Assembly: GCF_002564045.1 (NCBI RefSeq)
Contig: NZ_PDJK01000002.1
Location: 5,270,001-5,334,000, forward strand
Direction of reading: 5' to 3'
Length of the DNA: 64,000 bases
From: Amycolatopsis sulphurea
GTDB lineage: Bacteria > Actinomycetota > Actinomycetes > Mycobacteriales > Pseudonocardiaceae
Below, piece by piece: positions 53,421 through 64,000 of the stretch. Both the position numbers and the translations under genes were made by a program. The notes below the pieces were generated by a model that saw only the letters and a program-made list of their open reading frames with translations, ran no database searches and had not been told where the DNA came from. Each line of letters opens with the position of its first letter. Position 1 is the stretch's first letter.

Positions 53421-53738
53421 ATGAGCGGCAACGGGGGATACACCGCCTCCACCCAGGCAATGAGTGACGCGTCGAAGAAGCTCACCCGGTACGCCCAGGA
53501 CCTTCTCGACGGCAACCCGGACCTGGCCACGCCCGCCGTGGCGGAGAAGGACTTCGGGAACGCGCACACCGCGCACGCCAAGCAGTATCTCGACGGGGCC
53601 AAGAATCTCTCCGAAGCGGTCACCGGCTACCAGGCGAAGCTCGCCGAACTCGGCACGAAGCTCACCTCGGGCGCGAAGGCCTACGACGACAACGAATACG
53701 ACCAGAGCGGCCAGATCGACCAGGCGGGGACCCTCTGA
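53421..53738 (+). CDS. Small helical protein, EspC/WXG100-like
   Basis: A 105-residue soluble helical protein with GGAGAGCAGCGC upstream. It opens MSGNGGYTASTQAMSDASKK and ends in a disordered tail (DDNEYDQSGQIDQAGTL). Length, helix-turn-helix hairpin form, acidic character and position before a large WXG-type protein resemble the EspC/ESX-secretion-associated proteins of actinobacteria. The exact WxG motif is absent. Its stop overlaps the next start by one base, so the two are likely co-secreted partners. Confidence 0.65.
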   Translation: MSGNGGYTASTQAMSDASKKLTRYAQDLLDGNPDLATPAVAEKDFGNAHTAHAKQYLDGAKNLSEAVTGYQAKLAELGTKLTSGAKAYDDNEYDQSGQIDQAGTL

Positions 53739-56700
53739 TGGCGCAGCCCTCGTGGGAGGACATCAAGAAGGTCCTCGACGACCCCGCCGTCCCGCACGAT
53801 CAGAAGAGCAAGCTGATGTCGGCGTGCATGTTCAACGGGATGGCCATCCCGAAGGAGGACGCCGCCAAATACAGCCACGCCTATGTCTCCAACAAGGAGA
53901 TCAACTACGCGTTCGGCCCGCCGTCGATCGAGGACACCTACAACGAGGCCAAGCAGGCCGGCGATCAGGCGTCCTACAACGACGACGAGCACAAGAAGGC
54001 CGTCGACGAGGGCAAGAAGAAGCTCGACGAGAAGAAGCCGCCCGCCCCCGACGACACCAGTGGCACGAAGACCTCCGACGAGCTGCTGGACACCGCCAAG
54101 CCCGCGCTGAAGCTGTTCGAGACCTTCGGTTCGCTGTTCAAGGATCTGCCCGACGATTGCAAGGGCAACACCACCGAACTGAAGATGGACGAGATCACCA
54201 AACGCTTCGACGAGCAGCGCGCGATCTCCTTCGAGCACTTCATGAAGGACGCCACGCACTTCAAGACCGGCGCGGACACCGTCGACCAGGCCATCAAGGA
54301 CACCGGCTCGACGCTGACCACGTTGATGCAGACCTGGAAGGGCGCGGCCGCCGACGCGGCGTGGGACCACTACAACGACGATCTGGTGCCCAAGGCGACC
54401 AAGCTGCAGCAGTCGCTCGGCAGCGCCGCCGAGGCCACCAAGACCACCGCGGCCACGGTCTACTCCCTGGTCCAGACCAAGGCGCGGCAGATCATCGAGC
54501 TGTACAACAAGAACCTGCTGGTGGCCTGCGCGGACTTCCCGATGGCCAAGCTGGTCGTGAAGGTGGCCAAGGGCAGCGACGTCAGCGACGACGATCTGGC
54601 CGCCATCGCGGGCTGGATGGACGCGAACTTCCACACGAACCTCTATCAGACGCTCAACGATCGCGGCTGCTGCGACAAGACGGACATGAAGAAGGAAGGC
54701 CAGAAACTCGCCAAGCAGTGGATCCAGCAGCACTTCAACCCGGTGATGTGGGACCGGATCTATCAGCAGGGTTTCGTCAAGAGCTGCGACGACGCCAAGG
54801 AGTTCACCGACAAGGCCTATGACGAGCTGGACAAGGTCATGGGCAAGGTGAAGAACGAGTTCGGCAAGGTGGGGGACCACGGCGGCGCGGGCGGGACGGG
54901 TGGTTCCGGTGGCGGCCGCGGCGGTGGCGGCTACGGGGGCGGCGGTTATGGCGGTGGCGGTTATGGGGGTGGGCACGGCGGCGGTCGCAACGGCGGCCCG
55001 GGGGGCCAGTACGCCGGGCCCGGTGGTCCGAACGACCCCGGCGGCGGTCAAGGCGGCGGGGTGCCGGACACGAATCTGCCCAGTGGGGGCACGGGTGGCG
55101 GGTCCGGAAGTGGCGGTACGAGTGGTGGTTCCGGTGGTGGTGCGCCGCCGCCGACCCCGCCGCCGGTTCCGGATATCGATCTGCCGCAAGGGAATACGCC
55201 CGGTGGGTCCGGTCCCGGTGCCGGTGGGGGCGCGCCTCCGCCTGTGCCGGATACGAACCTGCCTGGCGGGGGTACCGGTGGTTCCGGTGGTGGTGCGCCG
55301 ATTCCTCCGCCCGTGCCGGACACGGATCTGCCGCCGGGCGGCTCACCGGGTGGCGGTACGGGTGGTGGCCCGCCGATCCCGCCGCCGGTCCCGGACACGA
55401 ATCTGCCCCCGGGCGACGACCCGGCCGGGCAGGGCGGCGACCATCCCGGTGACGACAAGGGCGGCGGTGGCAAGGACGACGGCAAGCCGGGCGAGGACGG
55501 CGGTGGTGGTTCCAGCGGTGGCGACCCCACCGGCGAGCACGGCGGCGAGGATGGCGAGGGCGGCGAGGAAGACCAGGAGACGCTGAAGGTCGAGCAGAAC
55601 GGCAAGACCTTCGAGATGACCGAGCCCGGCGAGGACGGGCGGATGGACATCAAGGTCGGCGACGGTGAGGGTGATCCGAAGGACTTCACCCTCGACTGGT
55701 CGTCCGGGGACGAGAACGGCGACGGCTCCGGGGACGAGAACGGCTCCGGGGACGGGACCGGCGGCGGCCAGGATGGCGGTCACGGTGGCGGGGACGGCCC
55801 GGACGGCGGGCACACTTACCGCCCCGGCCCGGACGGCAAGATCCACATTCAGGACGGCGACCTCAAGATCACCGCGGAACGCCCGGACGGTCCGGACGGC
55901 CCGACCAAGGTCACGGTCGACGACGGCAGCGGCAACCCGACCACCTACACCCTCGGCGAGCACCACTCGGCACACGATGGCTCCCACCCGGGAGACACCG
56001 GCCCGGCACACGACGGGTCCCCCAAGCACGACGAGCCCTCGAAACACGACGAGCCCTCGAAACAGGGCGGCACCGGCACCGGCCCGTCGCACGAGGGGAA
56101 GCCGGGGGACACGTCTCCTTCGCCGGTGGGCGGCGCGAGGGGCATCCCGGAGCCGGTGGACACCACGCCCTTGGCGGACGATCCGCGTCTGCGGCCGTTC
56201 GACGGCACCCGGATGCCGGATCCGGCCGATGATCCGTCGCCGGCGCATCCGGTGGAGCACGGCGTGCCCACCGGTGGCACCGGGCACGGGCCGGGCCTTG
56301 GGGACACGCCGCTGGAGCACGGATCTCCCGCTGGTGGCACTCTGCCGGATCATGGGTCTCCCGCCGGTGGCACTCTGCCGGAACACGGGTCTCCCGCCGG
56401 TGGCACCTTGCCGGGGCACGGGCCGAGTCTCGGGGATACGCCGCTGCAGCACGGGTCTCCTGCCGGTGGCACCCCACCGGAACGCGGGACTCCGCTCGGC
56501 GACACGCCCTCGTCGGCCGGGCCGCACCATGCCGGTGCACCAGGCGTGGCGCCGACCGATACGCACCTCGCCGGTGCGCCGACCGGACACCAGCTGGGCG
56601 CGCCGACGATGAGCGGCGGGCTGCCCGGTGTACCGGACAGCGGGACACCGGAGACCGGCCCACAGCAGCCCGGGGCCACCCCACCCGGCCACCCGATGGG

Positions 56701-56893
56701 TGGCGGGATGCCGATGGGCGGCTCCGGCGGTGGTGGAGGCGGTGGTGGCGGCGGCGAGGACCACGACCGCAGCCGCACCTACCGGGTGGAGGGCAACGGC
56801 CTGTTCGAATCGAGCGTTGCCTCGGGCCAGCGGATCACCGGTTCGCTCGATGACGACGACGATCTGTCCCCGGTTCACCGGGCGCGGAAGTGA
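53738..56893 (+). CDS. Large type VII secretion substrate-like protein with Gly/Pro repeat tail
   Basis: A 1051-residue protein. Residues 1-380 are helical and globular with a WxG motif at W200-K-G202 (MQTWKGAAADAAWDHYNDDL), like a WXG100-type secretion domain within a longer chain. Residues 381-590 are Gly-rich, then repeats of VPDTNLPxGGTGG. Residues about 600-650 and 690-745 are two similar beta-rich units (KVEQNGKTFEMTEPGEDGRM and GKIHIQDGDLKITAERPDGP). Residues about 840-970 repeat HGSPAGGTLP, and the end is Gly-rich then acidic (SLDDDDDL). No toxin or enzyme motif is seen. It is probably exported and interacts with the cell wall; inferred. Confidence 0.7.
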   Translation: MAQPSWEDIKKVLDDPAVPHDQKSKLMSACMFNGMAIPKEDAAKYSHAYVSNKEINYAFGPPSIEDTYNEAKQAGDQASYNDDEHKKAVDEGKKKLDEKKPPAPDDTSGTKTSDELLDTAKPALKLFETFGSLFKDLPDDCKGNTTELKMDEITKRFDEQRAISFEHFMKDATHFKTGADTVDQAIKDTGSTLTTLMQTWKGAAADAAWDHYNDDLVPKATKLQQSLGSAAEATKTTAATVYSLVQTKARQIIELYNKNLLVACADFPMAKLVVKVAKGSDVSDDDLAAIAGWMDANFHTNLYQTLNDRGCCDKTDMKKEGQKLAKQWIQQHFNPVMWDRIYQQGFVKSCDDAKEFTDKAYDELDKVMGKVKNEFGKVGDHGGAGGTGGSGGGRGGGGYGGGGYGGGGYGGGHGGGRNGGPGGQYAGPGGPNDPGGGQGGGVPDTNLPSGGTGGGSGSGGTSGGSGGGAPPPTPPPVPDIDLPQGNTPGGSGPGAGGGAPPPVPDTNLPGGGTGGSGGGAPIPPPVPDTDLPPGGSPGGGTGGGPPIPPPVPDTNLPPGDDPAGQGGDHPGDDKGGGGKDDGKPGEDGGGGSSGGDPTGEHGGEDGEGGEEDQETLKVEQNGKTFEMTEPGEDGRMDIKVGDGEGDPKDFTLDWSSGDENGDGSGDENGSGDGTGGGQDGGHGGGDGPDGGHTYRPGPDGKIHIQDGDLKITAERPDGPDGPTKVTVDDGSGNPTTYTLGEHHSAHDGSHPGDTGPAHDGSPKHDEPSKHDEPSKQGGTGTGPSHEGKPGDTSPSPVGGARGIPEPVDTTPLADDPRLRPFDGTRMPDPADDPSPAHPVEHGVPTGGTGHGPGLGDTPLEHGSPAGGTLPDHGSPAGGTLPEHGSPAGGTLPGHGPSLGDTPLQHGSPAGGTPPERGTPLGDTPSSAGPHHAGAPGVAPTDTHLAGAPTGHQLGAPTMSGGLPGVPDSGTPETGPQQPGATPPGHPMGGGMPMGGSGGGGGGGGGGEDHDRSRTYRVEGNGLFESSVASGQRITGSLDDDDDLSPVHRARK

Positions 56894-62211: not shown

Positions 62212-63691
62212 TCAGGATGTCCGGGGCGGGCCGAGGAGCTCGATGCCGATGGCGACAACGCCGAGGGCTTCGCGCTCGGGGGGATAGATCTGGCGGATGT
62301 TCGCGAGCTGGTCCTCGCGGGTGGCCAGCGGGTTGACCGAAGCGACGGTCTCGTGGGCGAACATGTCGTCAAAGGTGGCGTAGCGGGCGATGCGCGTGAC
62401 GCGGGTGAGGATTTCGTCCCCCTGGCAGCGGAACCGGATCAGCGAGCCTTCCTTGATCTTTTTGCGGCTGGAGTCGTTGACCCGGATCTCGGTGGTCTTG
62501 CGGCCGGCGGCGATGAGGTCGAAGTAGCGCTTGTAGATGCCCATTTCGTGGGCGCGCACCAGGGGCTCGGTGGGGCGTGCGGTCATGAGCCTGCCTAGTT
62601 CCTTGACGGTGAACGAGCGGAAGAAGTGCTTGGGGTCAGTGAGCAGTTCGCCGACCAGCCAGACCAGCGCGTCGACGTAGTTGTCGACGTCGGCGGGCCA
62701 GGCGGTGGTGTCGAGCATCCAGGGCTCGACATCGGCGGGCAGGACGTCCTTGCCGTGCTCGCGTAACAACGACTTGGACAGTTTCGCCCCGGTCGGGGCC
62801 AGCACCTGGGGCGTGAAGATCCTCGATGGCATCCGCGCCGGCGGCGTGTCCAGGGCGCCGAGGGCGCCGTCGACGAGCTGGCAGCCGAAAGTCCAGTCGC
62901 CGCCTTTCATCATCACGTGCAGCGTGCGCTCGTCACGGCCCAGCGCGCGTTCCTTGACCAGGTTCCGATAGAGCGTGGCCAGGTCCAGGTAAGGTTGATC
63001 GTCTTCGGGGTCAATGTGTGCCTCGTAAGGGCCGTGGTCGAAGCAAGCGGCGGTGGAGGTGGCGCCGTCCTCGTCGAGGTGGGCGAGTTTGGTGCGGTCG
63101 GCGCGTTTCTCCGCCCAGCCGCAGTCCGGGCAGGGAATCCTGATGTGGACGACGCCGTGGCTGGGCGCCATCCACCAGCGGATGTCTTCCAAGTGTTCAA
63201 GGGTGCGCAGGAACTCGGCTCGGAAGCCGGGGCCGGCTTGCTGGTCGGCGTAGGTCTCCACCGCATAGTCGGTGTCGGTGGCTTCGGACAGTGAGTCGAA
63301 GAACGCCCGGTAGTAGCGCTCGATCAGCTCGCCGACGCCGTCCTTGCTCAGGGCGTGGTAGTAGGTCTGCTGGTAGGCGCTGTGTGTTTCCGGGTCGAGC
63401 ACCACGTCATAGGGCGCGTTATCGAGCGCGCCGAACCGGACGATGGTGTCGATGGAGAACTCCCGCCGGGCGATCTTGGCGAGCAGAAACGCCCGCCGTG
63501 GTCTGGACCAGGTTCGTCCCGAGGTGCGGGGCGCCGTTGATCTGGGTGCCGACCACGAACTCGATCCGCGCCGGCCGCGCGGCCAGCACTTCGGGGCGCA
63601 GGATGTCGATCGAGCGCAGCAGTGCGTTGGCCAGCACGCTGTTCGGCGAGAGCAGCAGCCCGGATGTTTCTGGTTTTCCGTTGCGGGACAA
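62212..63691 (-). pseudogene. Class I aminoacyl-tRNA-synthetase-like protein fused to an ASCH domain, frameshifted
   Basis: Two overlapping minus-strand frames together form one protein. The first (TTG start at 63691, GAGGAG upstream) encodes RIEFVVGTQINGAPHLGTNL, with GAPHLGT like the class I HIGH motif. The second carries on as FLLAKIARREFSIDTIVRFG, ... IPCPDCGWAEKR ... and APTGAKLSKSLL, a KMSKS-like loop. The order HIGH, Cys pair, KMSKS recalls class I lysyl-tRNA synthetase. From about residue 385 an ASCH-type domain follows (MGIYKRYFDLIAAGRKTTEI, SLIRFRCQGDEILTRVTRIA). One extra base near 63492-63498 (GGGC where GGC would restore frame) breaks the frame; without it the protein is 492 residues. 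It may be a sequencing error, real decay or programmed shift. The start abuts the stop of the upstream kinase-like gene. Confidence 0.7.
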
Positions 63692-63697
63692 TGCGGT

Positions 63698-64000
63698 TCA
63701 CGCTCCTCGGCTGGGTTTGGGCAGGCGCAGGTTGGAGCAGATGAAGTCCAGCCGGGCGGCTGCGGCGTCGGGGGCGACGAACACCGGTTCGTAGCCGGCG
63801 TCGTAGTAGCCCTGCACGATCAGTTCGTGCACTCGGCGGATCTCGCGGTCCTTGGCCCAGACGATGTCGTCAGGGTCCTCGAAGGTGTCCAGCGGGCCGA
63901 GTACGAAGATCGCGTCGTAGCGATAGAGCCGGGTGGCCTCCTCCAGTTCGGCGGTGGGGCGCAGCCCGAAGAACGCGTCCCAGCCGTAACCGTCGGGGAT
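63698..64000 (-). CDS. P-loop ATPase/nucleotide-kinase-like protein (C-terminal part)
   Basis: The last 100 residues of a minus-strand gene whose 5' part is outside the window. LYRYDAIFVLGPLDTFEDPD, then KDREIRRVHELIVQGYYDAG and YEPVFVAP match the C-terminal pattern of AAA_28/NadR-like kinases, in which FVLxPL is followed by an arginine-rich lid (REIRRVHEL). The P-loop would be upstream and cannot be checked. The stop codon sits between the ribosome-binding site and the start of the synthetase-like gene, so the two form an operon and probably one pathway. Confidence 0.65.
   Translation of the reverse strand: MPDGYGWDAFFGLRPTAELEEATRLYRYDAIFVLGPLDTFEDPDDIVWAKDREIRRVHELIVQGYYDAGYEPVFVAPDAAAARLDFICSNLRLPKPSRGA

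What the first reader, a model, noticed from the sequence alone, without database searches (positions are those of the whole stretch)
62212..64000. Kinase-like protein coupled to a class I synthetase-like/ASCH fusion
A class I aaRS-like catalytic core (GAPHLGT, a Cys pair, AKLSKS) is joined to an ASCH RNA-binding-type domain and encoded right after a P-loop nucleotide-kinase-like gene. I know no characterised pathway with this pair. It could activate an amino acid for a non-translational use, modify an RNA, or be a conflict or antibiotic-tolerance system. It lies in an accessory-looking end of the window.
Basis: partly seen in the sequence, partly recalled or inferred. Interest (0 to 1): 0.78.

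Follow-up and report, generated by a model that had tools for sequence, protein, structure and literature searches.

The report
Mobile operon with a repurposed synthetase
Soil actinobacteria, their plasmids and some phages carry a small gene cassette built around an enzyme that looks like half of a tRNA-charging enzyme joined to an RNA-binding-type domain, often with what looks like its own genetic switch; what it attaches to what is still unknown, but the pairing is real and not chance.

Summary

The pairing is conserved. Of 49 fetched loci with the fused protein, 43 have the P-loop gene and a third gene (c1) upstream, and 2 have the P-loop gene alone. Streptomyces plasmids and phages mostly carry a two-gene form (synthetase + ASCH) with neither.

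New here: an 18-bp operator (two TGGGC half-sites 11 bp apart) at the c1 start. It is in 44 of 46 testable c1 loci and 0 of 58 loci without c1. All 7 matches in 298 genomes lie at c1 starts. c1 is probably the operon's own regulator.

Two tempting labels weaken. The 'kinase' lacks the Walker-A Ser/Thr (19 of 20 rows) and the catalytic Asp (20 of 20). The ASCH domain lacks YqfB's catalytic Thr (66 of 66).

Best reading: a mobile, non-translational aminoacyl-adenylate ligase acting on an RNA or nucleotide acceptor. Chemistry and role are inferred.

The parts
62212..63405 (-). ORF with the larger part of the synthetase-like core plus the C-terminal ASCH domain (397 aa)
62215..62559 (-). ASCH domain (115 aa)
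62770..62787 (-). KMSKS-like motif AKLSKS
   Evidence: both Lys and the last Ser invariant in 72 of 72 aligned relatives
63034..63132 (-). zinc-type set C-P-x-C ... C-x-x-H
   Evidence: invariant columns of alignment A3
63419..63691 (-). ORF with the N-terminal part of the synthetase-like core (90 aa; frame broken relative to the next ORF in this copy)
63515..63538 (-). HIGH-like motif NGAPHLGT
   Evidence: N, P, H, G, T invariant in 72 of 72 relatives
63698..64000 (-). P-loop (AAA_28) protein, 203 aa in all; runs 309 bases beyond the window end, to 64309 in extended coordinates. Beyond it, outside the window: c1 (64306-65223, minus, 305 aa, probable regulator) and two operator sites (65206-65223 over the c1 start codon; 65241-65258)
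   Evidence: changed catalytic positions; c1 and operator

Best explanation
A mobile accessory operon for a non-translational aminoacyl-adenylate ligase. The synthetase core, related to class I LysRS, uses ATP to activate an amino acid (or similar carboxylate). In place of the anticodon-binding part it has an ASCH domain, in cis (fused) or in trans (next gene), which holds an RNA or nucleotide acceptor onto which the aminoacyl group is passed. In the operon form the unit is switched by its own DNA-binding regulator, c1, through a dedicated set of 18-bp TGGGC sites. A P-loop protein that has lost usual kinase catalytic residues acts as a nucleotide-binding accessory. Shown: anatomy, predicted fold, motif conservation, operon conservation, operator specificity, mobile contexts. 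Inferred: adenylation, acceptor type, c1 binding, the accessory's part, and a tolerance- or conflict-type role.
Against: No activity is known and the acceptor is a guess; ASCH could be only a small-molecule binder. Foldseek's whole-chain superposition on 1irx is poor (TM 0.41-0.45, rmsd 10-15), though its E-value is best there. The PDB profile search gave 0 hits. Distant relatives sit in clusters that look like small-molecule chemistry, which favours the first rival. No tRNA gene at a fixed place (6 of 102 loci have one) and no Rfam match in 8 loci.
Confidence: 0.45

Rival explanations
1. Small-molecule pathway or detoxification: the ligase joins an amino acid to a nucleoside, nucleotide or other small amine, making or neutralising an aminoacyl-nucleotide-like compound (MshC- or BshC-like use of a synthetase core).
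For: Distant relatives lie in clusters that look biosynthetic or detoxifying. Pantoea: MTase, TIGR00730 (LOG type), DMT exporter, non-canonical purine NTP pyrophosphatase as annotated. Pelosinus: MTase, Lysine_decarbox (LOG type), Ham1 by Pfam. Five MAG contigs, four named Bacilli, share a cluster; in L045 it holds NUDIX, thymidylate-kinase-like, sub-threshold ASCH, three MTases, AlaDH, AlkZ-like and AdoMet decarboxylase genes. Parcubacteria MAG: S66 peptidase, APH, NUDIX, class II synthetase-like. Macrococcus plasmids: two ATP-grasp genes, MFS. BshC and MshC are fold neighbours.
Against: The split form on Streptomyces plasmids and phages has no fixed partner beyond ASCH in the neighbourhoods listed, so a multi-step pathway is unlikely there. 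The P-loop protein lacks kinase catalytic residues.
Confidence: 0.33
2. A resistant or spare tRNA synthetase that charges a normal tRNA, with ASCH standing in for the anticodon-binding domain.
For: LysRS-I-like core; PUA-type folds bind tRNA elsewhere (recalled). The window genome has no class I LysRS over the PF01921 cut-off.
Against: No anticodon-binding domain. LysRS-I lysine-pocket positions differ in the alignment (pocket residues recalled, not from a call). No tRNA gene at a fixed place. Patchy distribution with broken copies.
Confidence: 0.07
3. A conflict module (anti-phage, plasmid-phage or toxin-antitoxin-like) in which the ligase modifies tRNA or nucleotides. It overlaps with the best explanation, which leaves the role open.
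For: Phage and plasmid contexts; cargo between the endolysin and serine integrase genes in phage Picard. A regulator/P-loop/ASCH constellation recalls the (PIN)-GNAT-EVE operons described with ASCH and AAA_17 ATPases (PMC7641849, passages seen).
Against: No PADLOC match for the 4 proteins scanned. Among 140 flanking proteins the commonest defence models hit 3 each; single hits to IetA, SAVED, AriA and other models occur, and only 25 of 67 families were listed. The split form lacks any antitoxin-like partner other than ASCH.
Confidence: 0.15

Closest known systems
Class I lysyl-tRNA synthetase (LysRS-I; 1irx)
   Same: Catalytic core fold, HIGH/KMSKS-type motifs, Cys-containing insert aligned by profile
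   Different: No anticodon-binding C-terminal domain; ASCH instead; no PF01921 match at E up to 1 for the window pieces; pocket positions differ (pocket recalled)
MshC and BshC (thiol-cofactor ligases on a class I synthetase fold)
   Different: No Pfam or NCBIfam match to them; ASCH and the operon partners are not part of those pathways (recalled)
MetRS-like/cupin hydrazine synthetases (PyrN and kin; 9l8v; PMC8664883, search listing and start of abstract only)
   Same: Class I synthetase-like domain used outside translation; the PyrN C-terminal domain is at ranks 41 and 50 of the Foldseek list
   Different: No cupin match in our protein; ours is nearer LysRS-I
YqfB-type ASCH amidohydrolase (PMC6972931, passages seen)
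   Same: ASCH fold; Lys21 and Arg26 equivalents conserved in 66 of 66
   Different: Catalytic Thr24 equivalent is Glu in 66 of 66
Streptomyces phage Picard gp28/gp29 ('tRNA synthetase', 'RNA binding protein')
   Same: Same family, split form, 49% identical
   Different: No c1 or P-loop gene; annotated by name only

Membership tests
Class I LysRS | Class I Rossmann catalytic core with HIGH and KMSKS motifs | tested here: met
Class I LysRS | C-terminal anticodon-binding domain | tested here: not met
   1irx aligned only to residue 361 (chain length 507); model residues 377-485 are ASCH
Class I LysRS | Pfam PF01921 match | tested here: not met
   no match at E up to 1 for either window piece; intact distant members L044, L045, L086 also none
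Class I LysRS | lysine-pocket residues | tested here: inconclusive
   alignment shows different residues, but the list of pocket residues is recalled
AAA_28 nucleoside-kinase-like | Pfam PF13521 above cut-off | tested here: met
   79.3 bits against 27
AAA_28 nucleoside-kinase-like | Walker A Ser/Thr after GK, and Asp of the DRG motif | tested here: not met
   Asp or Glu in 18 of 20 rows, one Arg, one Ser; Asn in 20 of 20; eight relatives of about 30% identity have Thr/Ser and Asp in 8 of 8. The catalytic meaning of these positions is recalled.
ASCH (PF04266) | Pfam match and fold | tested here: met
YqfB-type ac4C amidohydrolase | catalytic Thr24 (with Lys21, Arg26) | tested here: not met
   Thr24 equivalent is Glu in 66 of 66 family ASCH domains, Lys and Arg kept in 66 of 66; residues from PMC6972931
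MshC/BshC ligases | membership by sequence profile | tested here: inconclusive
   fold neighbours but no Pfam or NCBIfam match
Hydrazine synthetase (cupin-MetRS) | cupin domain in the same protein | tested here: not met
   no cupin match
Known anti-phage defence system (PADLOC) | model match of any operon protein | tested here: not met
   0 matches for the 4 window/operon ORFs at E up to 1
Any of the above | enzymatic activity | not testable with these tools
   needs biochemistry

The most novel reading that the evidence does not exclude
A mobile RNA- or nucleotide-aminoacylation system: a truncated class I LysRS-like ligase whose tRNA-reading domain has been swapped for an ASCH base-reading domain, controlled by a dedicated regulator and a pseudo-kinase NTP sensor, spread by plasmids, phages and transposons as a conflict or antibiotic-tolerance trait, with outlying relatives in archaea and candidate phyla.
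Probability: 0.3. Interest if true: 0.85.

Novelty: new variant of a known kind. Interest (0 to 1): 0.63.

Why it matters
Synthetase cores reused outside translation are few, and several have revealed a new cofactor, base modification or natural product (recalled: MshC, BshC, GluQRS, EpmA, hydrazine synthetases). This is a LysRS-I-like branch with a base-reading-type domain, what looks like its own switch, and a phage/plasmid lifestyle. If it aminoacylates RNA or nucleotides, it adds a new modification. The split two-gene form on a 39.5-kb phage genome makes the question directly testable.

Tried and rejected

Literature: I looked for this combination in the held library only and saw none described in the listings; subscription papers and preprints are not held. 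Seen: passages of PMC7641849 and PMC6972931; search listing only (titles, starts of abstracts) for PMC8664883 and the rest.

Full report
WHAT IS THERE. On the minus strand, two ORFs (63419-63691 and 62212-63405) together encode a synthetase-like core and an ASCH domain. The frame is broken between them in this copy. Five same-genus copies and a Prauserella plasmid copy, 85-93% identical, are in one frame. Directly upstream is a 203-aa AAA_28 P-loop gene (63698-64309 in extended window coordinates). Upstream of that, outside the window and overlapping by four bases, is a third gene, c1 (64306-65223). Ordinary-looking chromosomal genes surround the operon (sigma-factor-like on one side, inositol-catabolism-like on the other, read by eye), and no transposon ends were recognised.

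DISTRIBUTION. Among 100 relatives 7 genomes have a match, and in an order-wide sample 7 of 298; both counts include fragments. A genome-collection scan found 173 relatives, of which 80 were returned; a viral scan gave 12. The plasmid collection holds 9 records covering at least 80% of the query, the phage collection 3, being two phages, one of them twice. Of the 92 loci L032-L123, the synthetase is fused to ASCH in 49, next to an ASCH gene in 36 (three archaeal) and without an HMM-detected ASCH in 7. The 49 include copies with a broken or truncated N-terminal part (L065, L079, L113). L032 and L054 have the same match scores and contig length and are taken as one sequence, L039 likewise with Picard (L020), and L053 and L055 are two copies on one contig; none was removed from these counts. 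In the tree the rows with c1, P-loop gene and fusion are strongly clustered (2 changes against a shuffled mean of 25); the four fused-only Streptomycetaceae rows group with the split form; the two MAG rows with P-loop gene and fusion branch near the base of this part, with weak support.

OPERON. Of the 49 fused loci, 43 have c1 and the P-loop gene upstream, 2 have the P-loop gene only and 4 have neither. None of the 36 split or adjacent loci has either (L058 starts inside the gene, so 35 are testable). c1 matches 4 of 298 order genomes, one of them a 41%-identity fragment that I do not count; the other three are operon genomes. P-loop relatives above 70% identity occur in the operon genomes and in two genomes with remnants; the rest are AAA_28-type proteins of about 25-34% identity. 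On plasmids c1 hits 3 records, all with the operon.

OPERATOR. Aligning DNA upstream of c1 showed a conserved element in otherwise poorly alignable sequence. It is TGGGC(A/T)TTTTCTGGGCAT or close to it, two TGGGC half-sites 11 bp apart. In the window's genome the sites lie at 65206-65223 (over the c1 start codon) and 65241-65258 in extended window coordinates. In Pseudonocardiaceae and some others two copies face each other in this way, the second covering the c1 start codon so that its reverse complement encodes the first residues M-P-x-K-S-P. In ten loci, among them Actinomadura and Streptosporangiaceae, two copies run in the same direction, 23 bp apart in nine and 24 in one. With one mismatch allowed, 44 of 46 testable c1 loci have a site within 130 nt of the c1 start (missing L075, L114; L033 untestable). 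0 of 58 loci without c1 have a site. 75 sites lie at c1 starts and 0 elsewhere in 1.56 Mb; one shuffled control gave 0. The pattern was drawn from these loci, so the positive count is not independent; the absence elsewhere is. Whole genomes agree: in 100 relatives the 11 matches lie in 6 genomes at the c1 start or, where c1 was not checked itself, 1.6-2 kb upstream of the synthetase match, where c1 lies; in 298 order genomes all 7 matches lie at the c1 starts of the three operon genomes. The reversed control pattern gave 0 in both. c1 is all-helical (pLDDT 88.8) without a clear fold match or Pfam family. An HTH-like stretch around its invariant H-F-R-K residues is my reading by eye. The simplest inference is that c1 binds these sites; whether it activates or represses is unknown, and a host regulator is not excluded.

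WHAT THE PARTNERS ARE NOT. The P-loop protein belongs to AAA_28, but the residue after Walker-A GK is Asp or Glu in 18 of 20 rows (one Arg, one Ser), and the Asp of the DRG motif is Asn in 20 of 20; eight ordinary relatives keep Thr/Ser and Asp. It is more likely a nucleotide-binding accessory than a normal kinase. The ASCH domain is closest to archaeal PH0355. The equivalent of the catalytic Thr of the YqfB amidohydrolase (PMC6972931, passages seen) is Glu in 66 of 66 family ASCH domains, while the Lys and Arg are kept, so base or RNA binding is the better guess.

DISTANT CONTEXTS. Relatives at about 24-30% identity sit in other settings: Pantoea and Pelosinus with MTase, LOG-type and Ham1-type genes; five MAG contigs, four named Bacilli, with a shared cluster that in L045 holds NUDIX, thymidylate-kinase-like, sub-threshold ASCH, MTases, AlaDH, AlkZ-like and AdoMet decarboxylase genes; Macrococcus plasmids with two ATP-grasp genes and an ASCH-like gene that I read by eye (no Pfam match); DPANN archaea with ASCH next door. 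A Parcubacteria MAG protein, 43% identical to L088, has S66 peptidase, APH, NUDIX and class II synthetase-like neighbours. These settings suggest use outside translation near nucleotide or amino-acid chemistry and are the main support for the small-molecule rival.

MECHANISM AND RIVALS. The two-gene form on phages and plasmids must work with common cell substrates: ATP, an amino acid and an acceptor. ASCH in place of the anticodon domain points to a base-bearing acceptor. I therefore favour RNA or nucleotide aminoacylation (0.45), then a small-molecule ligase (0.33), a conflict module (0.15, overlapping with the first) and a spare synthetase (0.07). Flanking genes of fused-type loci are mixed, with HTH regulators (7 of 140), DUF5753 (6) and resolvases (4) the commonest and no recurrent defence family.

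VERDICT. A real, conserved system, not seen described in the held library. It is a new variant of a known kind, repurposed class I synthetases, with an operon-specific operator found here. Function is open and directly testable.

Noticed in passing
L053, L055, L067 (also L052, L062, L088, L101): Resolvase- or Tn3-transposase-like genes lie near several fused-type operons (clusters c18 and c21; Resolvase; the Tn3 label is by eye), and Actinomadura violacea carries two copies on one contig: some operons may travel on Tn3-type transposons.
   Followed up: partly
G008, G065, G271, G311; L065, L079, L084, L113: Fragments and broken copies of the operon in several genomes suggest loss as well as gain, so the window's broken copy may be decaying too (or be an assembly error).
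   Followed up: partly
L057, L060, L064: In some Streptomyces the fused synthetase-ASCH gene lacks c1 and the P-loop gene and is followed by a low-molecular-weight phosphatase-like gene (PF01451 for L060); a gene of the same cluster follows in L115.
   Followed up: no
L045-L049: A conserved MAG cluster with AlkZ-like glycosylase, AdoMet decarboxylase, three methyltransferases and AlaDH around the synthetase-like gene looks like an unknown biosynthetic cluster, perhaps for a DNA-reactive compound (L045 scanned).
   Followed up: partly
L020, L039 (phage Picard): The cassette lies between the endolysin and serine integrase genes, near DNA-binding and 'histidine kinase' regulator genes, a usual place for phage cargo genes ('usual' is recalled).
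   Followed up: partly
window coordinates 72848-85568 (outside the window, L004/L005): Large PKS- or PUFA-synthase-like genes with alpha/beta-hydrolase-like and glycosyltransferase-like neighbours beyond the window end (read by eye).
   Followed up: no
window 53421-56893: A WXG100-like small gene followed by a 1051-aa protein with a long Gly/Pro-rich tail, an ESX-type pair by appearance (read by eye).
   Followed up: no
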